From a virus: a stretch of 64,000 nucleotides of DNA. This document shows positions 14,229 to 63,722 of the stretch, piece after piece. The stretch's first letter is position 1. Each line of letters opens with the position of its first letter. The stretch is taken from the IMG/VR virus record IMGVR_UViG_3300027844_001828, positions 124,001 to 188,000 of that record; one strand, given 5' to 3'. The notes beneath the pieces were generated by a model. That model ran no database searches. It saw only the letters and a list, made by a program, of their open reading frames with translations, and was not told the origin of the DNA. The position numbers and the translations under genes are program-made.

Positions 14229-14268
14229 TGGTGTGAATTAACTCACCACAAAAATATTCTCAAACCCC

Positions 14269-14296
14269 TTGAATAACGCAGATTATGTGTTATATT
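14269..14296 (+). promoter_or_regulatory. sigma70-like promoter
   Basis: TTGAAT (14269-14274), 16-bp spacer, TATATT (14291-14296). It lies just upstream of the truncated metallo-beta-lactamase-like gene, leaving only a very short leader before the TTG at 14313. The repeat GTGGTG...CACCAC lies just before it (14228-14249). Confidence 0.6.
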
Positions 14297-25221: not shown

Positions 25222-25710
25222 ATGGCCACAGAGATAAAATATATAGAAGGAGACGCAACGTCTCCGATAGGAGATGGACAGAAATTCATTCTCCATTGTT
25301 GCAATGATCTCGGATTGTGGGGTGCTGGATTTGTTCTTGCAATAAGTAGGAAGTGGGACAACCCAGAGGCATTTTACAGATGTTGGCATGATATAAAGGA
25401 AGAAGAGTATTCTGATTTTGAATTAGGATCATATCAAGTTGTCCCTGTTGAACCAAGCATGTATGTAGTCAATTTAATTGGCCAGCATGGAGTAGGATTA
25501 GAAAACGGTCCTCCAGTACGTTATGACGCCTTAGAAACAGGAATGAAAGGCTTATGTATGATCAAGAACACTACTCCATCAATGAGTATTCACATGCCCA
25601 GGATCGGCTGCGGTTTAGCAGGCGGGAAATGGGAACTTGTCGAAAACACTATTAAGAAAACTTTTTGTGAAGCCGAAATTCCGGTTACAGTATACGATTA
25701 TAACCCATAA
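25222..25710 (+). CDS. macro-domain protein (ADP-ribose binding or hydrolysis)
   Basis: A 162-residue single macro domain. It starts with IKYIEGDATSP (the GDAT/ADP-ribose loop), has HCCNDLGLWGAGF, and near the C-terminus PRIGCGLAGGKW, which are the phosphate- and ribose-binding loops seen in Poa1-like and other macro domains. Such proteins bind ADP-ribose or remove it from substrates, including ADP-ribose-1''-phosphate. The genome also carries a PARP-like writer (56852) and an NAD synthesis set, so a role as reader or eraser is inferred. AAAGGAAAATCAGC precedes the ATG. Confidence 0.85.
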   Translation: MATEIKYIEGDATSPIGDGQKFILHCCNDLGLWGAGFVLAISRKWDNPEAFYRCWHDIKEEEYSDFELGSYQVVPVEPSMYVVNLIGQHGVGLENGPPVRYDALETGMKGLCMIKNTTPSMSIHMPRIGCGLAGGKWELVENTIKKTFCEAEIPVTVYDYNP

Positions 25711-27769: not shown

Positions 27770-27797
27770 TTGAAAACCAGGTTTGGCGAGCTATATT
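27770..27797 (+). promoter_or_regulatory. sigma70-like promoter of ligA
   Basis: TTGAAA (27770-27775), 16-bp spacer, TATATT (27792-27797), 33 bases before the ligA start; its position rules out a longer ligA frame from 27783. Confidence 0.65.
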
Positions 27798-27830
27798 CTA
27801 ACCTTAACCAAACAACAGGAGAGCATCAAA

Positions 27831-29780
27831 ATGAGTCTTACCCCCACACAATTGACTGAAGCGAGTGAACTTATTACAAAACTTAGGTTGTGGAAAAACG
27901 CCTATTACATTGATAACAAGCCAGTTGTGTCAGATCAGGTATATGATGGCGGCGAAATGCGCCTCAAGCAGTTGATTCCTGATCACCCGTTCTTCGATGA
28001 GGTTGGATCGACAGTAGATGGGTTCAAGCCTATCGACTATGTTGCCGCAGGCGGTGAAAAGATGCTCAGTCTTGAAAAAGCCTATACAGAGCCGGAAGTG
28101 ACAAAATTCGCCGGGAAGGACGCATGGGTTCCAATGGTCAAGCTTGACGGAACTTCGCTCCGAGCAATCTACAGCGGCGGTAAGATCGAACTTGCCCACA
28201 CAAGAGGTAATGGAACTGTTGGTGATGACGTTACCAACAACTTCTACTTTGTGAAAGGATCGACTCCCAAGAAATACAAATGGGACACCTTTGAAGTCAA
28301 AGGCGAAGTTTGCATGACCTTTGATGATTTCGATGCGGTTAACATCGAAAGAGAAAGGGATGGGGAAGAAGTCTTCAAAAACCCCCGGAATGCCGCCAGT
28401 GGGTCTCTTAAGCAATTGGACATGTTCGAGACCGCAAAAAGAAAATTGCAGTTCGTCGCCTACGCAATAAAAGTAGAGGGGCACAGTTTCAAGTCGAAGA
28501 CTGAAATGCTTGATTCCTTGGAAGAAATGGGCTTCGTCACGGCAAGACTCAAGATTAAATTCAATACGATTGCTGATGTCATTGATAAAGTGACGAAGAT
28601 GCGTGAAAAAATTCCGATTCCGATTGATGGTATCGTCTTCGCTCTTGATGCCGTATCAGTGAGAGAAAAGAAAGGCTATACTGGTCATCACCCGAAATAC
28701 GAAATGGCTTACAAGTTCGCATCCGAAAGCGGGATCACCAAGTTGCTCGATTACGAATGGAACGTCACGAGAACTCGTCGTATTGTTCCCGTTGGTCTCA
28801 TTGAAGACATCGAACTCTCAGGGGCTGTTTGCTCAAGAGTCACGCTTCATAATGCGAAATGGGTCCATGACAAACATATTGCTATTGGCGAAGAGATTGT
28901 TATTGAAAGAAGCGGCGATGTCATTCCTCACTTTGTCAAAACTGTGAGAGCTACAAAAGACATTCCCTGGTCCTCGAAAGACAATCTTCCGACCAAATGC
29001 CCTGCCTGTAGAACCACACTTGTCAGAGTAGGCAATGTTGACCTCGGATGTCCTAACGAACATTGCTCTGGTGCTGCTTACGAGGCGATTATGCACTATG
29101 TAGGCAAGCCAGTTGTTAATATCAAGGCGGTAGGTGACAAATTGATCGCCCAACTCATCAAAGCGAATCTTATTGAAGACCCCGCAGACCTCTTCACATT
29201 AACCAAGAGTGACCTTATGACCCTTGATCGAATGGGTGATAAGAAGGCTGAAAAGACACTCGAAGCGATTAATAAGGCAAGGACTCAAGACGTGCAAACA
29301 TTTCTCAGGTCACTTGGTGTTGAATTACTTGGAAAGGATGTGTCTGAAAAGATCGCAGACTTCGTTGATCTTGATACATTAACTGTGACACGTGATTTGA
29401 CGCATATTGATGGAATAGCTGAAACGACAGCAACAGCGGTGACAGAAGGTCTTGACAAATCCAGACCACTTGCAGATAAGTTGCGTCAATATGTCAAGAT
29501 CACAACTGGTAAAGCTGTTGCACTTGGTAATTCCCTCGAAGGAAGCGCATTTTGTGTCAGCGGGAGCGTCGAATTTGATCTCGACGGTGAAAATTATTCA
29601 GAACGTAGTCAAATTCAGAACTTGATCAAGTCATACGGTGGTAAGGTCTCCAGTTCTGTATCTGGCAGAACGAGTTACCTCGTTGCTGGCCCAGGGTCTG
29701 GAAGCAAGTCAACAAAAGCAGATGACCTCGGTGTTACAATCATCGATGGTAATAAATTGGCAGAATTGATTGAAAATTGA
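27831..29780 (+). CDS. ligA: NAD-dependent DNA ligase
   Basis: A 649-residue DNA ligase of the NAD+-dependent family. The Ia domain is marked by AYYIDNKPVVSDQVYD, the adenylation site is Lys104 in MVKLDGTSLR, and later come the RNPRNAASGSLKQLD segment, a zinc finger (CPACRTTL...CPNEHC), helix-hairpin-helix repeats and a C-terminal BRCT domain (SLEGSAFCVSGSV...). It is near bacterial length (about 670). Its start is the ATG at 27831 with AGGAGAG upstream. It consumes NAD+, linking it to the NAD-synthesis genes in the genome. Confidence 0.95.
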   Translation: MSLTPTQLTEASELITKLRLWKNAYYIDNKPVVSDQVYDGGEMRLKQLIPDHPFFDEVGSTVDGFKPIDYVAAGGEKMLSLEKAYTEPEVTKFAGKDAWVPMVKLDGTSLRAIYSGGKIELAHTRGNGTVGDDVTNNFYFVKGSTPKKYKWDTFEVKGEVCMTFDDFDAVNIERERDGEEVFKNPRNAASGSLKQLDMFETAKRKLQFVAYAIKVEGHSFKSKTEMLDSLEEMGFVTARLKIKFNTIADVIDKVTKMREKIPIPIDGIVFALDAVSVREKKGYTGHHPKYEMAYKFASESGITKLLDYEWNVTRTRRIVPVGLIEDIELSGAVCSRVTLHNAKWVHDKHIAIGEEIVIERSGDVIPHFVKTVRATKDIPWSSKDNLPTKCPACRTTLVRVGNVDLGCPNEHCSGAAYEAIMHYVGKPVVNIKAVGDKLIAQLIKANLIEDPADLFTLTKSDLMTLDRMGDKKAEKTLEAINKARTQDVQTFLRSLGVELLGKDVSEKIADFVDLDTLTVTRDLTHIDGIAETTATAVTEGLDKSRPLADKLRQYVKITTGKAVALGNSLEGSAFCVSGSVEFDLDGENYSERSQIQNLIKSYGGKVSSSVSGRTSYLVAGPGSGSKSTKADDLGVTIIDGNKLAELIEN

Positions 29781-30079: not shown

Positions 30080-30093
30080 GGATGGAAATTGAC

Positions 30094-31251
30094 ATGATAA
30101 AATCAATGTTAGATTCAGATTTATACAAGTTTTCAATGCAAGCAGCAGTTCTTCACAATTTCCCCGGAGTAATTGTTGAATACCGTTTCAAATGCAGAAG
30201 TGTATGGGCGGATCTCGCCCAGCATAGGGATGAAATCGAGAGACAAATAGGTTTCCTTGGCAACCTTTACCTCACTCCCGACGAAGAGAAACAGGTTCGC
30301 GAGAAAATACCTTTCCTCAAGCCAGACTATGTTGATTTCCTTTCTGAATTCAGATTCAACCCTGATTTCGTGAAAGTTGAAACGATTTCTGATACTGAGA
30401 TTGATATTATTGTTCGCGGCCCATGGCTCCAAACAATTCCTTTCGAGGTCCCAATCCTTTCTATTGTTGAAGCAGTAGCATGCAAAGACTTAATGACTGA
30501 TGAAGCCTTGAGCATTGGCAGAAGAAACTTGGCTGACAAGATTGAAATCATCAAGGCCGTTGGTCCAGAATTCAAATTAGCAGATTTCGGGACTCGTCGC
30601 AGAGCGAGTTTCGAGCAGCAACGTTATGTTGTAGAGACACTTACGAATGAAGTTCCAAACAACTTTGTTGGGACAAGCAATGTCTCCCTCGCTTTAGATA
30701 ACAATATTAAACCAATCGGAACGATGGCGCATGAGTGGATTCAAGCAATGCAAGGTCTCACTTGGTTGCTCAATAGCCAGAAAATGGCTTTAGATATATG
30801 GATGAAAGAATATCGTGGTCAGCTTGGTATTGCTTTGTCCGACTGTCTTGGATACGCCGCTTTCCTTAGAGACTTCGATTTCCTCTTTTCGAAGAGCTAT
30901 GACGGCTGTCGCCATGACTCTGGCGATCCGTTTGAATGGGGTGAGAAGTTGATTAGACACTATGAATCAATGAGCATCGATCCGAAAACAAAGACAGCAG
31001 TATTCAGCGATGGTCTCGACATGATATTGGCCGTGAGGTTGTTTGAAAGGTTCCATGGGAGAATCAAAGTCTCTTTCGGCATTGGCACCCACTTGACCAA
31101 CGACCTTGGATTTGATCCTGTTCAGATCGTTTTGAAGATGGTCGAGTGTAATGGTCAACCGGTAGCAAAGATAAGCGACTCGTCTGGCAAGGGTATGTGT
31201 AATAACGCCGTATATCTTACCCATCTTAAAAACATGTTTGAGGTGGATTGA
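30094..31251 (+). CDS. pncB: nicotinate phosphoribosyltransferase
   Basis: A protein of about 385 residues (starting MIKSMLDSDLYKFSMQ at 30094; an earlier ATG at 30082 is also possible). It matches PncB: DSDLYKFSMQAAVL, VEYRFKCRS, ADFGTRRRASFEQQ, the phospho-histidine region MAHEWIQAMQG, and HDSGDPFEWGEKLI. It converts nicotinate and PRPP to nicotinate mononucleotide, the first step of the Preiss-Handler route. NadD (51632) and NadE (35292) for the next two steps are in this window, so the phage may resupply NAD+. Confidence 0.9.
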   Translation: MIKSMLDSDLYKFSMQAAVLHNFPGVIVEYRFKCRSVWADLAQHRDEIERQIGFLGNLYLTPDEEKQVREKIPFLKPDYVDFLSEFRFNPDFVKVETISDTEIDIIVRGPWLQTIPFEVPILSIVEAVACKDLMTDEALSIGRRNLADKIEIIKAVGPEFKLADFGTRRRASFEQQRYVVETLTNEVPNNFVGTSNVSLALDNNIKPIGTMAHEWIQAMQGLTWLLNSQKMALDIWMKEYRGQLGIALSDCLGYAAFLRDFDFLFSKSYDGCRHDSGDPFEWGEKLIRHYESMSIDPKTKTAVFSDGLDMILAVRLFERFHGRIKVSFGIGTHLTNDLGFDPVQIVLKMVECNGQPVAKISDSSGKGMCNNAVYLTHLKNMFEVD

Positions 31252-35291: not shown

Positions 35292-37226
35292 ATGACAATA
35301 CGTGGATACCACAAGATCGCTATTGCTGTACCCAAGCTCACCCTTGCAGATCCAGCCGCAAACGCTGAAGAAATTTGTAAGCAGATATCCTCTGTGCAAA
35401 ACACAGGTGTTTCAGTGATGCTTTTCCCGGAACTCTGTGTGACTGGATACTCATGTGGAGACCTCTTCCAGAGTAGAGCCTTGATAGAGGCCGGGTATGC
35501 TGCTTTAGGTAAAATCGCTGAAATGACAAAATGGGTTGACGGTTTACAAAGCGTCCCCACGGTGATTGTCGGCGCTCCCATTATAGCGTATGGAAAGTTG
35601 TATAACTGTGCTATAGTAATCTCTGATGGCAAAGTTTCTGGAATAGTACCAAAGAGTTACCTCCCCAACTACAAAGAGTTTTATGAGAAGAGATGGTTTG
35701 CTTCTGGAAAGGGGGTCAAAAACGACTCTTTGTCAGGGATTAATGATAGTCAAATAAGTTTCGGCACCGATTTGATTTTTAATTGCCGCAATGACGATCC
35801 ATTCCCCTTTGCTGTTGAAGTGTGCGAAGACTTGTGGGCTGTAAACCCTCCCAGCAATGATTACGCACTTGCCGGTGCCGAAGCTATTTTTAACTTGTCA
35901 GCGAGTAATGAACTTGTTGGTAAAGCATCTTTTAGAAAAGATCTTGTGGTTGCACATAGCGCCAAATTAATGTCTGCATATTTTTATGCCTCATCTGGAA
36001 TTTACGAGTCTGTTTCAGACGTGGTATTCGGTGGACATATGATGGCCGCAGTAAACGGGCACTTGATTAAAGAGAACGATAGGTTCAATCGTGAATCAGA
36101 AGTGATGACTGTTGCCGTTGATTTTGAAGCTATAGAACAACAACGTCGTTCCGAATCAATCTTTAGAGATTATGACACCATTGAAATGAGAGGTCAGGAT
36201 GTCAATCTTTACCGAACTGCCAATGCTGACTATTCAGATCTTGTCATTGATCCACATCCATTTGTCCCGTCTAATGAAAGTGTCATGAATGAGCGGTGTC
36301 AAGAGATTTTCACGATTCAATCAACAGCACTCGCCAATCGACTTCAACATGTCGGTGAAAATACGAAAGCGGTTATTGGCGTATCGGGAGGACTTGATTC
36401 AACACTTGCACTTCTTGTTGTTGAAAAAGCATTCAAACTCTTGGATAAAGATCTTGAAGATATCATTGCAGTAACAATGCCTGGACCCGGAACGTCAGAT
36501 AGAACCTTTAAAAATGCAAACGAGTTGTGTTTTGAAATGGGCATGGGATTAAAGGAAATAAGAATTAAAGAGGCTTGTGAACAACACTTAAAAGACATTG
36601 GACATGAATCGACAAGTGATGTGACATACGAAAACGTTCAAGCCCGTGAGCGCACACAAGTATTAATGGACCTTGCCAACAAACATGACGGTATCGTCAT
36701 TGGAACAGGTGATCTTTCAGAGATCGCACTTGGCTGGTGTACATATAATGGGGATCACATATCAATGTATGCTGTTAATTGCAGTGTTCCTAAGACCTTG
36801 GTGAAGCACTTGGTTTCATGGGTGGCTGATAGTGGTAATGTTACCACCAGAACAGGGGAAATTTTGCATGATATTGTTGATACGCCAATCTCTCCAGAAT
36901 TACTTGCGCCAAAAGATGGTGAGATCTCTCAAAAGACAGAAGATATCATCGGACCATATGAGCTTCATGATTTTTTCCTTTACTATACAATAAAGTTTGG
37001 GTTTACACCTGATAAGATTATCACTCTTGCCAAACTCGCATTCACAGAATATGAAGAGGCGGAGATTAAAACTTGTATGGAGACTTTTATCAAGAGATTT
37101 TTTGGGAATCAATTCAAACGCAATTGCATACCTGACGGGCCAAAGGTCGGTAGTATCTCATTGTCGCCTCGTGGAGACTGGAGAATGCCAGTTGAGGCCA
37201 GTTCAGCGGCCTGGATGAAAAGTTGA
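35292..37226 (+). CDS. nadE: glutamine-dependent NAD+ synthetase
   Basis: A 644-residue two-domain enzyme. The N-terminal nitrilase-like glutaminase has the Glu/Lys/Cys triad: FPELCVTGYSCGD (Glu), PKSYLPNYKEFYE (Lys) and VEVCEDLWAV (Cys). The C-terminal synthetase has the PP-loop motif GVSGGLDSTLALLV (around residue 360) and IGTGDLSEIALGWCTYNGDH. It amidates nicotinate adenine dinucleotide to NAD+ with ATP, the last step of the Preiss-Handler route. Length fits the bacterial long form. It has its own promoter. Confidence 0.92.
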   Translation: MTIRGYHKIAIAVPKLTLADPAANAEEICKQISSVQNTGVSVMLFPELCVTGYSCGDLFQSRALIEAGYAALGKIAEMTKWVDGLQSVPTVIVGAPIIAYGKLYNCAIVISDGKVSGIVPKSYLPNYKEFYEKRWFASGKGVKNDSLSGINDSQISFGTDLIFNCRNDDPFPFAVEVCEDLWAVNPPSNDYALAGAEAIFNLSASNELVGKASFRKDLVVAHSAKLMSAYFYASSGIYESVSDVVFGGHMMAAVNGHLIKENDRFNRESEVMTVAVDFEAIEQQRRSESIFRDYDTIEMRGQDVNLYRTANADYSDLVIDPHPFVPSNESVMNERCQEIFTIQSTALANRLQHVGENTKAVIGVSGGLDSTLALLVVEKAFKLLDKDLEDIIAVTMPGPGTSDRTFKNANELCFEMGMGLKEIRIKEACEQHLKDIGHESTSDVTYENVQARERTQVLMDLANKHDGIVIGTGDLSEIALGWCTYNGDHISMYAVNCSVPKTLVKHLVSWVADSGNVTTRTGEILHDIVDTPISPELLAPKDGEISQKTEDIIGPYELHDFFLYYTIKFGFTPDKIITLAKLAFTEYEEAEIKTCMETFIKRFFGNQFKRNCIPDGPKVGSISLSPRGDWRMPVEASSAAWMKS

Positions 37227-49501: not shown

Positions 49502-51475
49502 ATGAAAAAAATTAATCGTGACGAGTTGATCGGTAAGATTAAGGAAAGAGAGTCGAAGCTTGAAAACGCTTCGATTGAACTCAAAAAACATTTCGTTGGT
49601 CTTAATCCAACAATCGATGAAATAATCGATTCAATAAGAGTCTGGTACATTATGCCAGAAATTATCACACATCCGGTAATCGTAAATCTTTGGGGAATGA
49701 CTGGAGTTGGGAAAACCGATTTGATTCGTCGCCTTGTACAGCTTCTTGATCTTAGTGATCGTTTTCTTGAAATGCCAATGGACATTGAAGACACAAGTAA
49801 CTTCCACTGGCACAGTTCAATTCAAGGTGTTCTTGGATGTAGCAGTCTTGAGCCCGAAACTCCAGGCGTTGTTCTCTTTGACGAATTCCAACGTTATCGC
49901 ACCATTGACGAGCATGGCCATGAGCGTACCGATCTTAAGAGGTTTCAAGATATTTGGACCCTTCTTAGCGATGGAAAGTTTTCAAACTCCGGCAAGGGTA
50001 AGAATGAGATCCTTGAGATGTTAATGGACACTCTTTATTATGAAGAGAGAAGTGGAGACGACGACGCCGATGTAGAGCCCCCTATTGAACATGGTAATTT
50101 GACAACTAAGAGTAAGAACAAGAAAAATAAGGAAGTCAGCACTAAGAAGCGCTTTAGCTTCAGTTTCTATTCTGCCAAATCATTAAAGAAGACTCTCAGA
50201 ATCCCTGACACCATTGAAACCATAATGAAATGGACCGCCGAAACCAAAAAGAAGAAAATCATGGAGGCAATGGAAAGAGATGATATCCTTCATGGTGAAA
50301 GCTATTCCCAACTTTTGATTTTCATTTGTGGTAATCTTGATTCTGCATTCTGGATGGCCTCCCGCGCTGAAGATGCAGATACCGATGCAGATATCTTGCA
50401 CAAGCGAAGTCTTGATATTAACACAATAGATATCCGCACTTCATTGAAAACGAGATTCAGGTATGAACAGATTGCCCGACTTGGCAATACTCATATCATT
50501 TATCCGTGCTTGTCTTCAAAATCTTACCGGGAACTTATTTCTAGAAAGATCATAGACGCAACCAATAGTTTTAAGGCAAGCACCGACATTGACATCAAAG
50601 TTGATCGTTCGGTAAACAATGTGATATACAGAAATGGGGTGTTCCCCGCTCAAGGTGTAAGGCCAGTATTTAGTACGATCAACAGTTTGTTTACAACTTC
50701 AATGCCACCATTTATCATGGCGGCGCTCTTAGAAGACTGTAATCAAATTGACGTATCCTTCAAAGACAACAAAATGGTTTGTAAAATACGCGATCAAAAT
50801 CTCAGTAAGAAGGTGACCTGTAGTATTGACAATATTAAGGGCAAGACTTCTGAGGAACAAAAGCATCTCGTGGCGTTGCACGAAGCTTCACATGCTGTTG
50901 TTTATATGTTGAAGTTTGGCGTTGCGCCATGTCAGATTAAAAGTAATATATCAATGTTCTCTGGCGGCTTTGTAATGCCACACTCTATGTTAGAGTCAAA
51001 GAATATCTTGATAAGCTTGATTCAGGTTTATCTTGCTGGCCGTCTCGGTGAAATCGCATTTTTTGGTGACGGGATGACCTCGTCAGGGTGCGCTTCCGAT
51101 CTTATGGAAGCAACTAAGTTGGCCAGTAAAATGCTCCGTCGTTACGGCATGGGTGATAGCTTGTCAGTTGTTGTGACATCTAACTTTGAAGATGCCAGTC
51201 TTCTTAATCTTGATGTTGACGGAACAAACAAAGATATTGATTTGATACTTGACAATCGAGCCAAGGAAACGTCTATTATCATTAACGAAAATTTATCCTT
51301 CATTGGCGCAATCGCTGATGAATTGATGAGAAAGAATGGTGAGATGACAGATAAAGAGGTCGCTAAAATAGCCGAAGAGTTTTGTGAAAATAAAATTGAG
51401 TGTCTCCCAGCTGATCATAAAATCACTGAGAGTTATGTTGATAAGTATAATGAGAGGCGAACGGATGAAAATTAA
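49502..51475 (+). CDS. chimeric AAA+ ATPase fused to an M41 (FtsH-type) metallopeptidase
   Basis: A 657-residue protein. The ATPase half has Walker A GMTGVGKT (65-72), Walker B VVLFDEFQRY (123-132) and a late GVFPAQGVRPVFSTIN that looks like the sensor-2 GARP motif of Clp/HslU proteins, not FtsH. The C-terminal half is M41: HEASH (460-464), LAGRLGEIAF and the third zinc ligand Asp533 in ASDLMEATKLASKML. Transmembrane segments typical of FtsH are absent. A soluble, energy-dependent protease is predicted. An insertion of about 60 Lys/Asn-rich residues interrupts the ATPase domain. Confidence 0.8.
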   Translation: MKKINRDELIGKIKERESKLENASIELKKHFVGLNPTIDEIIDSIRVWYIMPEIITHPVIVNLWGMTGVGKTDLIRRLVQLLDLSDRFLEMPMDIEDTSNFHWHSSIQGVLGCSSLEPETPGVVLFDEFQRYRTIDEHGHERTDLKRFQDIWTLLSDGKFSNSGKGKNEILEMLMDTLYYEERSGDDDADVEPPIEHGNLTTKSKNKKNKEVSTKKRFSFSFYSAKSLKKTLRIPDTIETIMKWTAETKKKKIMEAMERDDILHGESYSQLLIFICGNLDSAFWMASRAEDADTDADILHKRSLDINTIDIRTSLKTRFRYEQIARLGNTHIIYPCLSSKSYRELISRKIIDATNSFKASTDIDIKVDRSVNNVIYRNGVFPAQGVRPVFSTINSLFTTSMPPFIMAALLEDCNQIDVSFKDNKMVCKIRDQNLSKKVTCSIDNIKGKTSEEQKHLVALHEASHAVVYMLKFGVAPCQIKSNISMFSGGFVMPHSMLESKNILISLIQVYLAGRLGEIAFFGDGMTSSGCASDLMEATKLASKMLRRYGMGDSLSVVVTSNFEDASLLNLDVDGTNKDIDLILDNRAKETSIIINENLSFIGAIADELMRKNGEMTDKEVAKIAEEFCENKIECLPADHKITESYVDKYNERRTDEN

Positions 51476-51635
51476 AGAACTCCAAGAATTAGTCAATGGT
51501 AGATTCATTGACGCCTTTGGCAGAACACCACTTCGGCAGCGACAGGAAGATATTTTGGGCGAGGCGATTGAACTCAAAAACGCAACAGATATTACGAATC
51601 TCAGAGAAGAGACGGGGGATTTGCTTCAACAATGA
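51465..51635 (+). CDS. N-terminal half of a split MazG-like domain
   Basis: A 56-residue ORF. RQEDILGEAIELKNA has the ExxE and NLREETGDLLQ the ExxD parts of the MazG-type pyrophosphohydrolase metal site. The stop (TGA) overlaps the ATG of the next gene (CAATGATG), whose first 36 residues (VEELVQSTLNKTERRKEQY...) look like the missing last helix of the same domain. Translational coupling or a -1 shift would join them. Confidence 0.5.
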   Translation: MKIKELQELVNGRFIDAFGRTPLRQRQEDILGEAIELKNATDITNLREETGDLLQQ

Positions 51636-52342
51636 TGTTGTGTAGTGAGTCTGGCTGGTCAGTAGAAGAGCTTGTGCAGTCAACTCTTAATAAGACAGAG
51701 AGAAGAAAGGAGCAATACCACACGTTGGGGAGAAAGACAAAGGTCGCTCTTCTTGGTGGGGCTTTTAATCCGCCTACGATTGGCCACTTAAGGCTTGCAC
51801 AGTTCATTCTCGATACAAGTAAGAACTTCGATGAGGTTTGGTTTGTACCGTGTTATCAGCACATGTATAACAAAGAACTCGTTACACCAGAGCATAGATT
51901 GGCTATGTGTAACTTGTTATGCGCTAACGATTGCAGAATAAAGACATTTGATTATGAGATCAAAAATCAATTACGTGGTGAGACTTACCATTTTGTAAAG
52001 AGATTGCTTGATGAAGACTTTGCAAAAGACCAATATGATTTTAGTATGATAATTGGGTTGGACAATGCTAACACATTTGATAAGTGGGTGAACTACGAAG
52101 ATCTTGAGAAGATGATGCGCTTTGTCGTGGTGTCTCGACAAGGGACCGAAAGAGATGAGTCTGTAGACTGGTACTTAAAGCCACCACACATTTATCTTTA
52201 CAGTGGTGGTGATGTCCCAGAGATATCTTCAACGGAAATCAGAAGGTGTATCGTCGAAGACGACACATCACAAGCCGCTTACGTTAAAGAGTTCATGGAT
52301 GATGGGGTATGGAAATACCTTTGTGATAACGAACTTTATTGA
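51632..52342 (+). CDS. nadD: nicotinate-nucleotide adenylyltransferase with MazG-like N-terminal tail
   Basis: A 236-residue protein. From residue about 37 it is NadD: VALLGGAFNPPTIGHLRLAQ with the GxFxPxHxGH-like motif (as FNPPTIGHL), WFVPCYQHMY, the SMIIGLDNANTF strand and the C-terminal ISSTEIRRCI. It adenylates nicotinate mononucleotide. With PncB and NadE it completes the Preiss-Handler path. Residues 1-36 resemble the C-terminal helix of a MazG domain. The start overlaps the preceding stop. Confidence 0.85.
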   Translation: MMLCSESGWSVEELVQSTLNKTERRKEQYHTLGRKTKVALLGGAFNPPTIGHLRLAQFILDTSKNFDEVWFVPCYQHMYNKELVTPEHRLAMCNLLCANDCRIKTFDYEIKNQLRGETYHFVKRLLDEDFAKDQYDFSMIIGLDNANTFDKWVNYEDLEKMMRFVVVSRQGTERDESVDWYLKPPHIYLYSGGDVPEISSTEIRRCIVEDDTSQAAYVKEFMDDGVWKYLCDNELY

Positions 52343-53809: not shown

Positions 53810-55471
53810 TTAACCGCTTGAACTGCTTGAGCAACTACTTGAACTGCTTGAGCAACTACTTGAACTTGAACTACTGTTACATGCCGCCGCAGTTATAGTA
53901 CAGCCACCACCATATCCATTATAGGCACCAGTGGCTGGAGAGGTTCCAGAATCGAACACGTAGCAACGTGGATTATCTCCTCCGTATGAGTTTTCATTAG
54001 CAAGAATCCATAATCCACCATCATAGTCACTGTAGAACAGTCTAAATAATTCATTGTTGTCTCTATGGGTATAAATCCAACGACTTCCACCTGTTACAAA
54101 TGACAACGTTGATGTTTGCCAGTATCCTTTACCACCAGTTGCACAGTAGATTCCAGAATATTCATCTGCGGTTCCAGTGACCTTATATGCTTGTTCGATA
54201 ATTGAATCGGCAGAACTCGAACTGCATGAGCAGCTTGAGCTACTTGACGGTGAAGGGTCAAGGGACATGCTACTACTACTACTGCTTAAGCTACTTGAGC
54301 TACTTGAGCTACCACATGCTGCTGTAATTAATGTGAGGTCATCATTTCCCCAAACTCCAATTGGAGGCGAGTCGGCACTAAAAGGGATCGATACGGCTTT
54401 GTTAAAACCATTATATGTACTTGGAGCAAGAACCCATCTTCCCACTTCTCTTTCTTCATAAAATAAGATCTTGGTGGCATCGGCGGCGTTTTCATAAACG
54501 AACTTGCTTCCGCCAGCAACAAATGCACCATCTAAGAAATAGGCGACATGATCAGGGCAGTAGACGCCATTGTATCCAGAGGTTTCAAATCCGGTTATCT
54601 TATATGATTGGGCTCCAAACGGATCGACGCTGGAACTACTTGAGCTACTAACCCAACTTGAACATGAGCTTGAACTACATGAGTTTGAACTTGATGAAAC
54701 CCAACTTGAACAAGATGAGCTTGAGGAACTTGAGGAAGATGATGAGCAACTACATGAGCAACTGCTTGATGAACTTGAGGATGAGCTACCACATGTTGCC
54801 GTTGCAATTACTGCGCTCCCGTCCCATGATCCAGTGGGTGGAGTCGTTCCATTGTCTTGTATTAAATCTATTTCGTTTTGGCCGTCATATAAATCTTCAT
54901 TTGCCAATATCCACCATCCACCAGCATAATTGTTGTAAAACAAGAACAAATCATTAGTTGGATCTTGATATCTCAATCTGCTTCCACCAGATACCCATGA
55001 ACCGTGATCATAATAACCAGAGTCAAAGGCGCAATAAACACCGTTCTGAGCTTGGGTTAAACCACCAACACTAAATGCTGATACAGCAAGATTGTCGAGG
55101 GAGCTTGAAGAGCTTGAGCAGCTACATGATGAGGAAGAACTTTGGGAAACTGAGGAACATGAGCTACTTGAGCTTGAACAATCGACATTTTGTGTTATGG
55201 TAAGACCACCGTCACCCCAGACACCGGGTGGCGGCACTAAGGCGGAATGCTTCAGATTAGTGTATTGATTGAAGCCGTTGTAACTTTGAGCTATGGTCCA
55301 TCTATTAATAGTACCGTAAATCTCATAAAAAATCTGCTTGGTGGCGTCATCTCTATTGTTATAGATTTGTCTTGTCCCACCGCCAACGAAGGCTCCGCTT
55401 TCATAGTACCCTAAAGAGTCTTCACAATAGACACCATCAAAACCAGTTGAATTGCTAATTCGTATAGCCAT
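53810..55471 (-). CDS. four-module Ser/Cys-rich surface protein
   Basis: A 553-residue protein on the - strand. It has four tandem modules of about 85-95 residues, each with G(V/I)YC near its start, YY or Y, FV(G/T)GGSR-type turn, FYxxYDGGWWILA-like aromatic strand, and ending G(V/A)WxxxxTITxxxC. They are joined by Ser/Cys-rich linkers of about 20-50 residues (also containing CSSWVSSSS, like the peptidase linker), and the C-terminus is such a tract. The linker family ties it to the proteins at 10140, 14723 and 52407. Probably a host-binding virion protein. Confidence 0.65.
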   Translation of the reverse strand: MAIRISNSTGFDGVYCEDSLGYYESGAFVGGGTRQIYNNRDDATKQIFYEIYGTINRWTIAQSYNGFNQYTNLKHSALVPPPGVWGDGGLTITQNVDCSSSSSSCSSVSQSSSSSCSCSSSSSSLDNLAVSAFSVGGLTQAQNGVYCAFDSGYYDHGSWVSGGSRLRYQDPTNDLFLFYNNYAGGWWILANEDLYDGQNEIDLIQDNGTTPPTGSWDGSAVIATATCGSSSSSSSSSCSCSCSSSSSSSSSSSCSSWVSSSSNSCSSSSCSSWVSSSSSSSVDPFGAQSYKITGFETSGYNGVYCPDHVAYFLDGAFVAGGSKFVYENAADATKILFYEEREVGRWVLAPSTYNGFNKAVSIPFSADSPPIGVWGNDDLTLITAACGSSSSSSSLSSSSSSMSLDPSPSSSSSCSCSSSSADSIIEQAYKVTGTADEYSGIYCATGGKGYWQTSTLSFVTGGSRWIYTHRDNNELFRLFYSDYDGGLWILANENSYGGDNPRCYVFDSGTSPATGAYNGYGGGCTITAAACNSSSSSSSCSSSSSSCSSSSSG

Positions 55472-55641: not shown

Positions 55642-56202
55642 ATGAAAATAAGAAAAGCCGTATATGCTGGCAGCTTCGATCCTGTGACCAATGGGTATCT
55701 TGATATCATCAAGAGAGCGTCCAAAATTTTTGATGAGGTTATCGTTGCAATTGGTATGAATCCTGGTAAAACACCAATGTTTTCTGCTGATGAAAGATAT
55801 AAATTTGTACATGAAGCCACGTCAGCGAAGAAATTTGGATCGTTGTTGAGCGTGACATATTCGAGGAAGGATTCTAAAAAGATAGAAAAATTTATTCTTT
55901 CGACTGAGGCCGGGGTAGATTACAGTTGCTTGACAGAAAGACGCCTTCATGGTCTTGACTATTCAATAATTGCAGCCCCAAGGAATATTTACGAGAAGTA
56001 CGCCAAGGCAATCGCCAGTGAATACATTGTTCATGGTGGTTGCACAATAAATGAATACGTGAATGGTAGACATAAGTTTTTGAAGAGCACAATAGAGTCG
56101 GATGTTTTCTTGACTGACGAATTTGCACCATCAGAAGCAATGGCTCAGGAAAACATGGAATGGGAAATTGAAAATCTTTATAAAATAGCGGGGTCAGAAT
56201 AA
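55642..56202 (+). CDS. CoaD-like nucleotidyltransferase with altered active site
   Basis: A 186-residue protein whose first 60 residues match phosphopantetheine adenylyltransferase: [21 protein letters not shown] and [20 protein letters not shown]. The catalytic (T/H)xGH motif is TNGY here, so the key His is Tyr. The C-terminal 80 residues diverge. It may be inactive or have a different substrate. It is followed closely by two small ORFs. Confidence 0.75.
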
Positions 56203-56797: not shown

Positions 56798-56851
56798 GAT
56801 CACGTTGATATTTAATCCAAACAATTTCTAACTCAGATCGGAGAATATAAC

Positions 56852-58294
56852 ATGGGCCTCAAAGCACACAAGTTTGGCACACATCCGTTTGACACAACCT
56901 ACGATGTGATTGATTCCGCCACACTCCAATGCACTGACCTCAAGAAAGGGTCTAACAAGTTCTATCAGATGGAGTTACACAAAAACGCCTCTGGTTATTG
57001 GAGGATCTTCACAGCTAACGGGCGCACAGGCTCATACTCTACCCAATTGGAGCGTATGCCTGAAGACGAGACGGCAGGACGCGCAGAGTACGCAAAGATT
57101 TTCCGCACCAAGACCACCCGCAAGAGTCAGCCTTATACTAAGGTTGATGTTGTGAATTCCAACCTTGGAACAGATGCTGGGAACCAAGTTGTTCAATCAG
57201 ACGACTTCGATCAGAAGAACATCACCGTTGCCGACACAGGCAAAAAGAATAAATCAAAGAAGGTTATTCCAATCAAGATTTCTCAGTTGGTTTCCAGGCT
57301 CTACAGTGAAGCCGGTAACGCTTGTAAAAGCCAGCTTCATGGAAGTGTTCAAGCGAGTGAAGAGAACCCTCTTGGGACTCTTACAAAAACTCAGATTGAA
57401 GATGGTAGAGCCATTCTTCAAGAGGCGAATGCCATCTTGGTCGCTGACGCCACTCGTATTGACTCAATTGAATCTGAGGTTATCGCTATAACTGACAAGT
57501 TCTACAGCACTATTCCACAGGAAATTGCTCTTCGCCCGAAAACTAAAGCCGGAGAAGATGCCCGTGATGATTGGATGCGTGGAATTGCCCTCAACAATGC
57601 TACAATCCTTGATGATAAGTTTGATCTTCTCGACCTTCTTGGTGATGTGAAGGGAATGATGGGCGGTTTCGCCACGACAGATGAAGAAAAACGTTTGAAA
57701 GAGGCGAACTGTGAGTTTTCTGAAGTGGACAGTGCCACTTTCAAACAGGTCTGCGATCTTATTGTCAATACTCAGTCGAAGCACCACAATTGGAAGTTGA
57801 ATCCAAGGCGAATTTTTTCAATGAAAAGCAAATCTCAATCAAGTCATAAAAAAACAATGGGGGAAACCGGGAATTGTCAAGAACTTTTCCATGGATCTGG
57901 ATCTCAAAATATTTTGGGAATATGTAAACGAGGAATTTTAATACGTCCTCCTGGGGTCTATATTACTGGCGCGTTATTGGGAAACGGGGCTTATTTCGCT
58001 AATAATAGTACAAAATCAAGTCAATATTCTACTGGCAGATTTGGTGGATCTGGATCTTCCAATGGAAATACTTCATTTATGTTTGTTGCCAACGTGGCTC
58101 TTGGGAAAGTGAAAAAATTAAGCAAGGGTAGCAGTTCTATTGTCAAAGCACCGAATGGTTTTGATTCTGTTATGGGGGCTGCTAATTATACAGATTGTGG
58201 ATGGAGTAAACTCCTTCATGATGAATTTGTAGTTTATGATGTTAAACAGCATACTCTTGACTACTTGATTGAATTTGAACAATCTTATAGATAG
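56852..58294 (+). CDS. PARP1-like ADP-ribosyltransferase (WGR - helical - catalytic)
   Basis: A 480-residue protein with the three-part plan of PARP1's C-terminus. Residues about 25-100 form a WGR-like domain (NKFYQMELHKNASGYWRIF). Residues about 130-290 are helical, like the regulatory domain. The catalytic part has His347 (ELFHGSGSQNILGI), Tyr381 (GNGAYFANNSTKSSQY) and Glu458 (LHDEFVVYD), the H-Y-E triad of poly-ADP-ribose polymerases; PARP1 has LWHGS, GIYFAD and NEYIVYD at these sites. It probably transfers ADP-ribose from NAD+ to protein or nucleic acid, perhaps sensing DNA ends. The macro protein at 25222 is a plausible partner. Confidence 0.88.
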   Translation: MGLKAHKFGTHPFDTTYDVIDSATLQCTDLKKGSNKFYQMELHKNASGYWRIFTANGRTGSYSTQLERMPEDETAGRAEYAKIFRTKTTRKSQPYTKVDVVNSNLGTDAGNQVVQSDDFDQKNITVADTGKKNKSKKVIPIKISQLVSRLYSEAGNACKSQLHGSVQASEENPLGTLTKTQIEDGRAILQEANAILVADATRIDSIESEVIAITDKFYSTIPQEIALRPKTKAGEDARDDWMRGIALNNATILDDKFDLLDLLGDVKGMMGGFATTDEEKRLKEANCEFSEVDSATFKQVCDLIVNTQSKHHNWKLNPRRIFSMKSKSQSSHKKTMGETGNCQELFHGSGSQNILGICKRGILIRPPGVYITGALLGNGAYFANNSTKSSQYSTGRFGGSGSSNGNTSFMFVANVALGKVKKLSKGSSSIVKAPNGFDSVMGAANYTDCGWSKLLHDEFVVYDVKQHTLDYLIEFEQSYR

Positions 58295-58412
58295 AGAGGG
58301 ATTTAACTTTAAGGGTATACTATTGACGAGAGAGAGATTTCTGGTCCAGAAGTAGAGAAGAAAAAAAATATTTTTAATCCAGAGCTTGAATCACCGAGAT
58401 GAGGGGGTTATA

Positions 58413-59033
58413 TTGAAAACAGTAAGAACAACAGTGGATGGAAAGACTGAGTTTGAGATGATCGAGGAAGGTGCGGTTGTGGCGGCTTGCAAATACACTC
58501 AGGGAAACGCATCGTTCATACCAACCATTTCAAATCTTAAGGTGAAGCTAAGTGAGAGAAAGAAAGGGTACGCTCGAAAACTAATGATGAAGATCATGGA
58601 AGGGTTTGGCCCTCCGATCCAACTACAGGCGATACCATTTAGAGATTTGGGAGAGAAACAAGATCCTATCACAGTTGAAGATCTAAGAAAATTTTATGAG
58701 TCATTGGGTTTTGAAGGATTGCCAGGAACAAAGTTTATGCTCTGGTATTTGAAAGACAATGATGAGAACATAGCCACGAAGCAATTCTCTTTGTATCTAT
58801 GGGAAGCGAGACTAACGAACATCGAAGGTATCTTTGGTACAGGAAAAACTGAAAAGGAATCAATTGGAGATCTTGTTTCAAGGTATCCAGTAATTTTCGG
58901 AGTCAAGAACATTGGAAAATCAGAAGACAACGATGCTTGGGCAACTGGAGATCTTGCTTCAAGGTATCCAACAATTTTCGGAGTTAAGAACATCGGAAAA
59001 TCAGAAGACAAAGAAGTGGCGGCAACTCATTAG
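58413..59033 (+). CDS. GNAT-like acetyltransferase with C-terminal tandem repeats
   Basis: About 206 residues from TTG 58413 (GAGGGGG 5 bases upstream; a TTG at 58386 is a longer option). The first 120 residues suggest a GNAT fold: NLKVKLSERKKGYARKLMMKIM is the acetyl-CoA loop and FYESLGFEGLPGTKFMLWYL the last strands. The C-terminus holds two near-identical 27-residue repeats (GDLVSRYPVIFGVKNIGKSED form), encoded by an 81-bp direct repeat. The substrate is unknown. Confidence 0.6.
   Translation: MKTVRTTVDGKTEFEMIEEGAVVAACKYTQGNASFIPTISNLKVKLSERKKGYARKLMMKIMEGFGPPIQLQAIPFRDLGEKQDPITVEDLRKFYESLGFEGLPGTKFMLWYLKDNDENIATKQFSLYLWEARLTNIEGIFGTGKTEKESIGDLVSRYPVIFGVKNIGKSEDNDAWATGDLASRYPTIFGVKNIGKSEDKEVAATH
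58866..59012 (+). repeat. 81-bp tandem direct repeat within the GNAT-like gene
   Basis: Unit 1 (58866-58946) and unit 2 (58947 to about 59012) are nearly identical over GGAGATCTTG...TCAAGGTATCCA and TTTTCGGAGT...GAAAATCAGAAGACAA, giving the duplicated 27-residue protein segment. The copies differ mainly at third codon positions, so the duplication is recent and under protein-level selection. Confidence 0.85.
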
Positions 59034-59034
59034 A

Positions 59035-59232
59035 GTGTTAAGTGTTGAGGGAGAACTTGTTAATATTGTCATCCCTGGATTTAGTGCCACAGAAGTGATC
59101 ACCATTACAACTGATAACATTCCATCCGAAGTTTTATCAATTTTTGAACCAGACACAAGGGTTTATGCAAGAGTTAATATTGGGGTGGAAGATTCCCAAC
59201 ACCTTGATTTTTCAGATTGGAGTACATCATGA
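59035..59232 (+). CDS. small hypothetical protein
   Basis: A 65-residue ORF from GTG 59035 (start uncertain; the frame is open further upstream within the repeat gene). It has FSATEVITITTDNIPSEVLSI and RVYARVNIGVEDSQ. Its stop overlaps the next ATG (ATGA). Function unknown. Confidence 0.4.
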   Translation: MLSVEGELVNIVIPGFSATEVITITTDNIPSEVLSIFEPDTRVYARVNIGVEDSQHLDFSDWSTS

Positions 59233-60041
59233 GATATAGAATAACACTCTCAAACTCCACCGTCCCCTTGATTGCCAGAAAACATTTTTCAACCAGATGC
59301 CATGTTTGCAATAGTTTGTTTACCAGACATGGTTGTTCAAATTGTCCGCCAAGTCCAAGATATAACACCAAACAAAAAACAGGAGAGAGCAAGATGCAAA
59401 AGACATTGACAGTAGCAGTGAGTGACGAAATCCACAATGGATTTGTAGCCAACGGCTGTGAATTCAGCGCCCATGACATCACCGTTGCCATTCGTAAAAA
59501 GATCAACGCGGGCGATTTGGAGATTCACGGTCTTCCGTTTCAAGATGTTGACGGGACTCCGAATACGCAGCGTATCGAACATGACGCTGTACGAACTGAA
59601 GTTCATGGTGTCTGTGGTGTTGATAACATCACCGGATATGCTCGCAAGTGGAACAGAACTGTCGGCTATTTTAGCTGGACCTTAGATGCTGCCACCGATG
59701 ACGATGACGATGACTTCGTAAACATTGCAACCAAGGATGGCACTTCCGTTATCTGGAATTCGCAAACACCAGCGCCCGCCCTCCCGCCAAAGACGCCGAC
59801 GATCAAGGCCAATGCGGCGGCAAATCCGAATGATCATATCGTCATCGGAAAGATCCTAAACTATGTCAATGGCAGAGTTAACGATGGTGTCAACCCCACG
59901 TTGAAGGCAACACAGAGTTGCATCAAGCGTAACCCTCTTACGGTCAGACAAATCTCTGATATCGTACAGAACAATGGTTACAAGATCAGCAATGATGGAG
60001 GAAAGGCGTACTGTTATTCCGAAATCACACCCTCAAGCTAA
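59229..60041 (+). CDS. hypothetical protein, zinc-knuckle N-terminus
   Basis: A 270-residue frame from ATG 59229 (ATGA overlap). Residues about 24-40 have CHVCNSLFTRHGCSNC, a possible zinc site. A strong AGGAGAGAG lies before ATG 59394 (MQKTLTVAVSDEIHNG), so a 215-residue form starting there may be the main product and the upstream part a fused small gene. A DDDDDD run and a Pro/Ala-rich stretch precede a C-terminal domain (LTVRQISDIVQNNGYKIS). No family recognised. Confidence 0.55.
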   Translation: MRYRITLSNSTVPLIARKHFSTRCHVCNSLFTRHGCSNCPPSPRYNTKQKTGESKMQKTLTVAVSDEIHNGFVANGCEFSAHDITVAIRKKINAGDLEIHGLPFQDVDGTPNTQRIEHDAVRTEVHGVCGVDNITGYARKWNRTVGYFSWTLDAATDDDDDDFVNIATKDGTSVIWNSQTPAPALPPKTPTIKANAAANPNDHIVIGKILNYVNGRVNDGVNPTLKATQSCIKRNPLTVRQISDIVQNNGYKISNDGGKAYCYSEITPSS

Positions 60042-62207: not shown

Positions 62208-62468
62208 ATGACCACGAACAAGCAGATCGAAGAACTTCGCGAAGAGAACCGTGCCCTCAAGGCCAATCTCGCCAGAGCCAAGGGTTTGTTTCGTTCTCTT
62301 GAGTCAATGTTGGACATCAACGCCTCAATTCTCAAGGGCGACACCACGGGGTGTCACGACGCTTGGCGTTATACGGAAAAGGCAACATTTAACCTTCGCT
62401 CATTCTTTGACAGAGTTTATGGGGTAAAAGAACTCGTGGAGAAGAGCCGTGCAGAAAACCATTCATGA
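62208..62468 (+). CDS. coiled-coil protein
   Basis: An 86-residue protein from ATG 62208 (TGAGGTG 5 bases upstream; the ATG at 62196 is an alternative). The first 35 residues form a leucine-zipper-like helix (KQIEELREENRALKANLARA). It overlaps the FHA gene by 20 bases. Function unknown. Confidence 0.6.
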   Translation: MTTNKQIEELREENRALKANLARAKGLFRSLESMLDINASILKGDTTGCHDAWRYTEKATFNLRSFFDRVYGVKELVEKSRAENHS

Positions 62469-63021
62469 TACGATAGAGTTCAAACCGGAATTGGTGTTTT
62501 TATCTTCGAAATACGGTAAGAAAGGGGGCATCTTCTCTCTTACCAACATTCCGATTGGAGAATCTATAACGATTGGGCGAAGCCCTAATTGTGACGTTTC
62601 GCGTCCGACAAGTAGTGCCTTAAGTAAAATACACTACAAAATCGTTAGGGTGGAGACCAAAAGGTTTGTTCTTGAAGACTGTGATAGCACGAATGGAACA
62701 TTCATCAATGGTTTGCAAGCTCATGAATCAAATATTGATGCCGGTGACATTATAGGCTCCGGTGATATTGAGATCTTGTTTAATGATGGCAATCCTCTCA
62801 ACACAAAGAACAAGGCAGTAATTGATTGGACTACAGAAAGTTTCAATGCCGAAGACATGGACAGCTTGAACCCATTCAACAATGGTGATTCAGCAATCGA
62901 TAAAATTAAAAAGAAAAAGACTGACTTAACGGTTAAGGTGATTTTATTTACCTTAGTCATCATCGCTTGCTTGGTCGGCGGATCATTGCTCGCATTATTA
63001 ATCGGATTGGGGATACTCTAA
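62449..63021 (+). CDS. FHA-domain membrane protein
   Basis: A 190-residue protein starting at GTG 62449. An FHA domain spans residues about 15-105: ITIGRSPNCDVSRPTSSALSKIHY (GR and SKIH signatures) and LEDCDSTNGTFINGLQ (the STNGTFIN phospho-threonine site). The C-terminus (about 160-190) is one transmembrane helix (VILFTLVIIACLVGGSLLAL). It would bind phosphothreonine partners at a membrane. It lies with GspF-like and prepilin-like genes. Confidence 0.8.
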   Translation: MQKTIHDTIEFKPELVFLSSKYGKKGGIFSLTNIPIGESITIGRSPNCDVSRPTSSALSKIHYKIVRVETKRFVLEDCDSTNGTFINGLQAHESNIDAGDIIGSGDIEILFNDGNPLNTKNKAVIDWTTESFNAEDMDSLNPFNNGDSAIDKIKKKKTDLTVKVILFTLVIIACLVGGSLLALLIGLGIL

Positions 63022-63546
63022 ATGGAATATAAATACAAGGCAATGGATGGGCAAGGCAAAGAGTGTAAAGGAACTGTTGCTGCCAAGAGCGAGAATGAGG
63101 CCTGTTCTCTTATCAAAGAAATGGGTCAGTTCCCAATAAGTATTACCCCTGTTGGAGCCGAAAATGGTGAGAAAGAACATAGTAAGGCTCGTAAAGGTTT
63201 CGCTCTCATTATGGACAACCTCAAAGAGGCGGTTGAGACCTGGGATGGGCCAAACAAAGATGAGCCCGAATTGTCCGATTTAGAACGGGAGACCTCAAAC
63301 GCTCTTAAACTCTCAGGGTTCGGCAAACACATAGTTGATTTTGTTTGCAAGTGCGTCAAAGACCGCAAGAATCCAAAGGAAGTTTTGCTTCACATGTATA
63401 CAGCAGAACAAGAACTCCCCATTCAATTGTTGTTCGCATGGATCGAGAATCCCACCGATGAAAATGTGAAAAAACTTGGAAAGAGATTGAATATTGACAT
63501 AGACAAGACTATCTTGAACATGGAGCAAGAAAATGCAAAGGAATGA
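63022..63546 (+). CDS. protein with a GspF/PilC N-terminal-like domain
   Basis: A 174-residue protein. The first 45 residues (EYKYKAMDGQGKECKGTVAA, ENEACSLIKEMGQFPISI) match the short alpha/beta domain that opens GspF/PilC-type platform proteins. No transmembrane region follows; instead comes a charged, helical region (DLERETSNALKLSG, IVDFVCKCVKDRKN). It abuts the FHA gene (0 bases). Its role is unknown. Confidence 0.6.
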   Translation: MEYKYKAMDGQGKECKGTVAAKSENEACSLIKEMGQFPISITPVGAENGEKEHSKARKGFALIMDNLKEAVETWDGPNKDEPELSDLERETSNALKLSGFGKHIVDFVCKCVKDRKNPKEVLLHMYTAEQELPIQLLFAWIENPTDENVKKLGKRLNIDIDKTILNMEQENAKE

Positions 63547-63643
63547 CACGCGAGTAATTGAACCATTCGGTTTTATGGGATTCTTTTTCTTGTTATGTTT
63601 GGAGGGGAGGCAGGTTCCCCAAGAAACAACAGACCTAAGATGA
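63533..63643 (+). CDS. tiny membrane-type ORF
   Basis: A 36-residue ORF (MQRNDTRVIEPFGFMGFFFLLCLEGR...) with a short hydrophobic core, overlapping the previous stop in another frame. It is followed by an ATGA overlap. Confidence 0.35.
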   Translation: MQRNDTRVIEPFGFMGFFFLLCLEGRQVPQETTDLR

Positions 63644-63702
63644 ATCCGTGGTTCATTGTGTCAGTAATTTTTGCGGAGGCAATCTTAATTATAATAGTTT
63701 AA
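63640..63702 (+). CDS. tiny membrane-type ORF
   Basis: A 20-residue hydrophobic ORF (MNPWFIVSVIFAEAILIIIV) whose ATG overlaps the preceding stop. It could be a small membrane peptide, but the length makes the call weak. Confidence 0.3.
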   Translation: MNPWFIVSVIFAEAILIIIV

Positions 63703-63722
63703 CATAAACATCGAGAATTAAA

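What the first reader, a model, noticed from the sequence alone, without database searches (positions are those of the whole stretch)
56852..58294. Phage-encoded PARP1-like enzyme with WGR, helical and H-Y-E catalytic parts
The domain order and catalytic triad (His347, Tyr381, Glu458, with the VVYD context of PARP1's NEYIVYD) match eukaryotic-type poly-ADP-ribose polymerases, not the mono-ART toxins usual in phages (such as T4 Alt/ModA). It has its own promoter.
Basis: partly seen in the sequence, partly recalled or inferred. Interest (0 to 1): 0.78.

Follow-up and report, generated by a model that had tools for sequence, protein, structure and literature searches.

The report
PARP1-like enzyme in a jumbo phage
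A large bacterial virus carries an apparently intact relative of the human DNA-damage enzyme PARP1, along with its own genes for making the NAD+ that such an enzyme consumes; phage PARPs were already known, but this grouping of genes does not appear to have been described.

Summary
ORF 56852-58294 (480 aa) is an intact WGR, helical (HD), ART protein with an H347-Y381-E458 triad. Pfam WGR, PARP_reg and PARP all score above cut-off. The AlphaFold model (pLDDT 87) overlays human PARP1 bound to a DNA break (Z 29.5, 399 residues). The record is a 235.6-kb phage.

PARP-like phage proteins are already published, so the protein itself is a new member of a known kind. The 'own promoter' is unsupported.

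What I add:
1. The family is common: at least 98 IMG/VR contigs, plus megaplasmids. The triad is kept in 75/75 proteins examined.
2. An unnamed winged-helix-like protein ('X') lies downstream on the same strand in 19 loci, 16 within 1 kb, and is absent from 1.08 Mb of control phage DNA.
3. The window carries pncB, nadD and nadE, NAD+-dependent ligase and a TARG1-like macrodomain. In the closest relative, PARP, X, macrodomain, a nicotinamidase-like gene, pncB, nadE, nadD and Nudix lie within 15 kb on one strand.

Best reading: a DNA-break-responsive ADP-ribosyltransferase fed by the phage's own NAD+ supply. The enzyme class is nearly certain; trigger, product and role are inferred. NAPRT enrichment in PARP phages is not significant after size matching.

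The parts
56852..58294 (+). WGR-HD-ART protein (PARP1/2/3-like), 480 aa; WGR 23-93, HD 143-267, ART 294-476; triad H347, Y381, E458
56840..56843 (+). GGAG, probable ribosome-binding site 8 bases upstream of the ATG
   Evidence: Sequence
58386..59033 (+). GNAT acetyltransferase-like gene between PARP and X
   Evidence: Pfam Acetyltransf_7 E=3.2e-4, below its cut-off
59394..60041 (+). Protein X (ORF listed from 59217; ATG at 59394 more likely): winged-helix-like N-terminal domain; linked to PARP in 19 loci
30082..31251 (+). PncB, nicotinate phosphoribosyltransferase
   Evidence: TIGR01514 447 bits against a cut-off of 269.55; PDB 1yir E=3e-112
35292..37226 (+). NadE, NAD+ synthase with an N-terminal nitrilase-like (glutamine amidotransferase) domain
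   Evidence: NF002730 837 bits against a cut-off of 473; Pfam NAD_synthase and CN_hydrolase
51632..52342 (+). NadD, nicotinate-nucleotide adenylyltransferase
   Evidence: TIGR00482 112.1 bits against a cut-off of 112.45; PDB 1kam E=4e-15
25222..25710 (+). Macrodomain of the TARG1/ALC1-like kind, candidate eraser of ADP-ribosylation
   Evidence: PDB 2fg1 2e-50, 5e3b 1e-47, ALC1 2e-11, TARG1 about 1e-6; phrog_335
27783..29780 (+). NAD+-dependent DNA ligase LigA (a second NAD+ consumer)
   Evidence: TIGR00575 493 bits against a cut-off of 444.45

Best explanation
The gene encodes an active PARP1/2/3-type ADP-ribosyltransferase of a jumbo phage. The WGR domain binds DNA strand breaks or ends; as in PARP1-3 this should relieve HD autoinhibition of the ART domain, which then takes NAD+ and attaches ADP-ribose (probably short or branched chains) to itself and to proteins at the break. 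The likeliest place of action is phage DNA replication or repair, possibly together with the downstream winged-helix protein X. The phage can replace consumed NAD+ with its own PncB-NadD-NadE route, and a TARG1-like macrodomain may remove the marks. Shown here: domain architecture, predicted fold, triad, presence of the NAD+ genes, gene linkage. Inferred: catalytic activity, DNA-break activation, chain formation, targets, partnership with X, and that the NAD+ genes serve the PARP.
For: All three PARP1-core domains above cut-off. Model pLDDT 87, overlaying DNA-bound PARP1 (4dqy) with Z 29.5, rmsd 3.3 over 399 residues. Triad and the Gly-Arg of WGR invariant in 75/75 phage and megaplasmid relatives, so the family is under selection for activity. 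Protein X, with a winged-helix-like N-terminus, is downstream on the same strand in 19 loci, 16 within 1 kb, with none in 1.08 Mb of control DNA. DNA ligases recur near PARP in relatives (12 loci). PncB, NadE, NadD and a TARG1-like macrodomain lie in the same window. The closest relative has PARP, X, macrodomain, nicotinamidase-like gene, PncB, NadE, NadD and Nudix within 15 kb on one strand.
Against: No biochemistry. The WGR tryptophan is Asn, and positions matching PARP1 R865, M890 and Y986 differ, so DNA-end recognition and chain growth may differ from PARP1. In the window itself the macrodomain and NAD+ genes are 4.5-31 kb from the PARP. NAPRT co-occurrence with PARP is not significant after size matching, and 21 of 33 PARP records lack a detected NadE. 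PARPs in relatives also sit in other contexts.
Confidence: 0.5

Rival explanations
1. Host takeover: the enzyme ADP-ribosylates host proteins such as RNA polymerase or nucleoid proteins to redirect the cell, like T4 Alt/ModA but with a PARP fold; WGR only brings it to host DNA.
For: Proposed for phage PARPs in PMC7824862 and for phage ARTs generally in PMC9503650. It explains why hosts need not be PARP users.
Against: T4-type enzymes have no WGR or HD; retention of both in 75/75 relatives suggests control by DNA. No packaging or head-gene context near this gene.
Confidence: 0.25
2. Anti-competitor or abortive device: breaks in incoming foreign DNA activate the PARP, which drains NAD+ or modifies the intruder, while the phage's own NAD+ route and macrodomain protect it.
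For: Own NAD+ synthesis and macrodomain in the window; a macrodomain gene lies within 15 bp upstream of PARP in nine loci of one clade, reminiscent of DarT-DarG pairs.
Against: The macrodomain is 31 kb away in the window and absent from the 10-kb flanks of many relatives; PADLOC gives no defence match for the PARP.
Confidence: 0.13
3. The PARP and the NAD+ genes are unrelated passengers: large phages often carry NAD+ salvage against host NADase defences, and the PARP uses whatever NAD+ is there.
For: NadV-type genes in 33% and macrodomains in 56% of jumbo phages (PMC9503650). Size-matched enrichment 9/21 against 3/17, p=0.16.
Against: One-strand run of PARP, X, macrodomain, nicotinamidase-like gene and later PncB-NadE-NadD-Nudix in the closest relative; a nicotinamidase-like gene also about 4.7 kb downstream of PARP in L070/L243.
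Confidence: 0.45
4. The protein is a mono-ADP-ribosyltransferase, or acts on DNA ends rather than proteins, despite its PARP1-like core.
For: Differences from PARP1 at the positions of R865, M890 and Y986; PARP1 M890V loses over 200-fold activity (PMC6486540).
Against: Catalytic Glu458 is kept in all relatives; Glu988 in PARP1 is the elongation residue. PARP1 Y986H, which matches H456, branches more rather than stopping (PMC6486540).
Confidence: 0.3

Closest known systems
Human PARP1 WGR-HD-ART core (PDB 4dqy, 4opx), and PARP2/PARP3
   Same: Domain order, fold over residues 6-480, H-Y-E triad, full set of HD helices
   Different: About 25% identity; no zinc fingers or BRCT; WGR Trp is Asn; R865 to G350, M890 to L375, Y986 to H456
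Published phage PARPs: Xanthomonas phage XacN1 BBA65562.1, Cellulophaga phi4:1/phi17:2, Klebsiella phage 05F01
   Same: WGR-HD-ART architecture and triad in large tailed phages
   Different: Only 23-27% identical to the window protein; different clades of the tree; none has a fully surveyed NAD+ route here
Bacterial PARPs on megaplasmids (Aneurinibacillus, Bacillus sp. M6-12, Paenibacillus; and, from the literature, the C. difficile CD160 and Herpetosiphon enzymes)
   Same: WGR-HD-ART; the Aneurinibacillus and Bacillus proteins are 34-35% identical and share His at the PARP1 Y986 position
   Different: Carried on 360-910-kb plasmids or chromosomes; neighbours differ
T4 Alt, ModA and ModB
   Same: Phage-encoded ADP-ribosyltransferases
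   Different: R-S-E catalytic signature, no WGR or HD
Phage NAD+ salvage (NadV/NadM/NadR; NARP1 and NARP2)
   Same: Phage-encoded NAD+ replenishment
   Different: Here the deamidated route PncB-NadD-NadE; the held survey (PMC9503650) lists NadV, NadM and NadR only
DarT-DarG
   Same: An ART and a macrodomain in one genome; adjacent in some relatives
   Different: The ART is PARP-type, not DarT; not adjacent in the window

Membership tests
PARP clade 1 (DNA-dependent, PARP1/2/3-like) | WGR domain | tested here: met
   Pfam WGR 35.8 bits against a cut-off of 22; the structural overlay with PARP1 4dqy spans residues 6-480. Gly-Arg kept; the Trp position is Asn, and only 15 of 75 relatives have Trp
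PARP clade 1 (DNA-dependent, PARP1/2/3-like) | Helical regulatory domain (HD, PARP_reg) | tested here: met
   PARP_reg 37.7 bits against 26.8; helices 141-285 in the model
PARP clade 1 (DNA-dependent, PARP1/2/3-like) | ART domain with H-Y-E triad | tested here: met
   PARP 100.1 bits against 26.7; H347, Y381, E458 invariant
PARP clade 1 (DNA-dependent, PARP1/2/3-like) | Activation by DNA strand breaks | not testable with these tools
   Needs an enzyme assay
PARP clade 1 (DNA-dependent, PARP1/2/3-like) | Synthesis of poly(ADP-ribose) | not testable with these tools
   Needs an enzyme assay; E458 is compatible, G350, L375 and H456 differ from PARP1
T4 Alt/ModA-type ART (R-S-E clade) | R-S-E catalytic signature | tested here: not met
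   H-Y-E; best family PF00644 and PARP structures
DarT-DarG toxin-antitoxin | DarT-family ART next to a DarG macrodomain | tested here: not met
   No DarT match for the PARP; the macrodomain has only a weak, partial DarG match and lies 31 kb away
NARP2-type NAD+ reconstitution (NadV with an NMN adenylyltransferase) | Nicotinamide phosphoribosyltransferase (NadV/NAMPT) | tested here: not met
   The only PF04095 gene in the record is a nicotinate enzyme, TIGR01514
Preiss-Handler (deamidated) NAD+ route | PncB, NadD and NadE | tested here: met
   PncB and NadE above equivalog cut-offs, NadD 0.35 bits under, supported by PDB matches
Complete recycling of nicotinamide to NAD+ | Nicotinamidase (PncA) in the same genome | tested here: not met
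   None found in this record; nicotinamidase-like genes in relatives L239 and L243. The record may be incomplete, and the host may supply the enzyme

The most novel reading that the evidence does not exclude
Some jumbo phages run a self-contained ADP-ribosylation system: a DNA-break-activated PARP (writer), a macrodomain or ADP-ribosylglycohydrolase (eraser), a dedicated winged-helix partner X, and a nicotinamidase-PncB-NadD-NadE loop that turns released nicotinamide back into NAD+, making phage PARP signalling independent of the host.
Probability: 0.3. Interest if true: 0.82.

Novelty: new variant of a known kind. Interest (0 to 1): 0.56.

Why it matters
PARP signalling is usually thought of as eukaryotic, and published surveys mention PARPs in only a few jumbo phages. 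A common phage family that keeps the whole active site plus WGR and HD gives small three-domain models for testing DNA-dependent activation, and bears on where eukaryotic PARPs came from. The linkage to protein X, and to NAD+ synthesis and ADP-ribose-removing genes in the closest relative, suggests a phage-run ADP-ribose economy that the papers held here do not describe, and gives direct experimental handles.

Tried and rejected
Rejected: 'own promoter' (no outstanding shared upstream motif in 31 intergenic starts). Rejected: artefact or pseudogene (intact, conserved, and an identical protein in two other contigs). Rejected: R-S-E ART and DarT membership. The profile search with 16 divergent sequences failed for lack of conserved stretches; smaller alignments worked. 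A DnaE query meant to fetch control phages found none, so contigs with a ThyX-like DNA pattern served as controls; these are smaller than the PARP phages. NAPRT enrichment: p=0.03 unmatched, 0.16 for records of at most 210 kb, so it is not claimed. Macrodomain presence (18 of 33) is no more than the 56% reported for jumbo phages. Protein X: the model is low-confidence beyond about residue 100, and its winged-helix matches have E of 0.1 or worse. Ligase neighbours: their N-termini may be WGR-like, but Pfam is silent and hhalign gives 60.7%. The position of human PARP1 near the window clade rests on supports of 83-92, a very long branch and a single eukaryotic sequence, so no direction of transfer is claimed.

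Full report
What is there. The ORF at 56852-58294 (+) is intact and encodes 480 aa. Pfam finds all three PARP1-core domains above curated cut-offs: WGR 23-93, PARP_reg 143-267 and PARP 294-476. The nearest solved structures are PARP1 WGR-CAT chains (E about 1e-30). An AlphaFold2 model from a 40-sequence alignment has mean pLDDT 87 and pTM 0.85. It overlays PARP1 bound to a DNA double-strand break (4dqy_C) from residue 6 to 480 with Z 29.5, rmsd 3.3 and 399 aligned residues; PARP1 to PARP4 fill the list. H347, Y381 and E458 correspond to PARP1 H862, Y896 and E988.

The replicon. The window is positions 124001-188000 of a 235,624-base virus record. The record encodes a DnaB-like helicase, a Dda-like helicase, RecJ-like and UvsX-like proteins and a tail or baseplate protein, so it is a large tailed phage. 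The same PARP protein, 100% identical, is in two other IMG/VR contigs.

The family. Six of these contigs, plus the window, form a starred seven-member phage clade; the other six proteins are 45-52% identical to the window's. In 75 phage and megaplasmid proteins the triad and the Gly-Arg of WGR never vary.

Differences from PARP1. The WGR Trp is Asn; R865 is G350; M890 is L375; Y986 is H456. The window clade and its nearest megaplasmid neighbours have His at the Y986 position (13 proteins); all other relatives have Asn (62). In human PARP1, Y986H raises branching about 15-fold (PMC6486540) and gives short hyperbranched PAR (abstract of PMC11594298). That suggests, but does not show, a short or branched product.

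Neighbours. I clustered 1,823 ORFs around PARP genes. Macrodomain genes recur in 14 relative loci. Nine of these lie within 15 bp upstream of PARP; those nine belong to one deep clade, so they are not independent. In the closest relative the macrodomain is 983 bp downstream. DNA ligases recur in 12 loci. A profile built from homologues of window 59217-60041 (protein X; start more likely at 59394) finds 19 members, all downstream of PARP on the same strand, 16 of them within 1 kb, in separate deep branches of the PARP tree. X is single-copy among the ORFs of this record and absent from 1.08 Mb of control phage DNA. It has no Pfam match. Its first 100 residues or so model confidently and weakly resemble winged-helix proteins.

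NAD+ supply. The window holds PncB (TIGR01514), NadE (NF002730), NadD (TIGR00482, at cut-off) and NAD+-dependent LigA, and a macrodomain whose solved relatives include 2fg1, 5e3b and, more distantly, ALC1 and TARG1. PncB, NadD and NadE make up the deamidated (Preiss-Handler) route. The held survey of viral NAD+ systems lists NadV, NadM and NadR as the phage enzymes and mentions neither NadE nor nicotinamidase (PMC9503650). In the closest relative (L239, from IMGVR_UViG_3300012943_000001) the order on one strand is PARP 1206-2609, X 2613-3518, macrodomain 3589-4080, nicotinamidase-like 4123-4923, then, after other genes, PncB 11314-12537, NadE 12570-14288, NadD 14692-15297 and Nudix 15294-15824. 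The nicotinamidase assignment rests on weak scores (Pfam 0.004; PDB 2h0r 2.6e-4). No nicotinamidase was found in the window's own record.

Is the NAD+ link real? Among 33 large PARP-encoding records, 17 have a NAPRT-family gene, 12 have NadE and 10 have both. Of 17 PARP-free control contigs, 3 have NAPRT. Fisher p is 0.03, but 0.16 when only records of at most 210 kb are compared, and relatedness is not controlled. The published background is NadV in 33% of jumbo phages. The link is a hypothesis supported by gene order in the closest relative, not by statistics.

Mechanism. From established knowledge of PARP1-3: the HD holds the ART domain inactive until WGR (with other domains in PARP1) engages a DNA break. 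Conservation of WGR and HD throughout the phage family makes the same control the most economical reading. Where it acts (repair of phage DNA, host takeover, exclusion of rivals) is open; the neighbours modestly favour replication or repair.

Novelty. PARP-like phage proteins are published (PMC4245714, PMC7824862, PMC9503650). New here, as far as the held literature shows, are the extent of the WGR-HD-ART family in phages, the linked protein X, and the co-location with a deamidated NAD+ route. The 'own promoter' is not supported.

Noticed in passing
L018:4825-11629 (LR756511.1, 595-kb uncultured phage): PARP is followed by an ATP-dependent DNA ligase and, 4.2 kb downstream of PARP, by an ADP-ribosylglycohydrolase (PF03747, E=1.3e-52): another possible writer-eraser grouping.
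   Followed up: partly
L240:6490-10825 and L241:6970-11088: Other PARP-carrying phage records have compact runs with a clear isochorismatase/nicotinamidase-family gene (PF00857), a PF04095 gene and NadE.
   Followed up: partly
L239:4123-5694 and L243:8577-10146: The nicotinamidase-like gene is followed directly by a possible VWA-like protein in both relatives of the window phage.
   Followed up: no
L021-L028, L118: WGR-HD-ART proteins recur on 360-910-kb megaplasmids of Bacillales, Pseudomonas, Variovorax and Vibrio; some of these replicons may be phage-derived.
   Followed up: partly
window 10140-14228, 53810-55471, 14723-15928: Long proteins with repeated Ser/Cys-rich spacers (SSSSSCSCSSSS); the one at 14723-15928 (-) is also a papain-family C1 peptidase (E=8e-23).
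   Followed up: no
window 62449-63992: FHA protein with a C-terminal hydrophobic stretch, then a gene that by eye resembles the start of a type II secretion F protein, and one with a pilin-like N-terminus (FTFIEILVVAAI). Possibly pilus or secretion-like genes and a hint to the host.
   Followed up: no
window 55642-56202: The first 62 residues match pantetheine-phosphate adenylyltransferase CoaD (E=3e-21), but the rest does not, and residues 104-179 match a different phage family: a chimeric or diverged enzyme.
   Followed up: partly
window 49502-51475 and 37395-37949: AAA plus M41 (FtsH-like) peptidase and a ClpP-like protease, both phage-encoded.
   Followed up: no
window 191-1000, 39576-40613: Thg1-like tRNA guanylyltransferase and an RNA ligase, consistent with RNA repair functions in this phage.
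   Followed up: no
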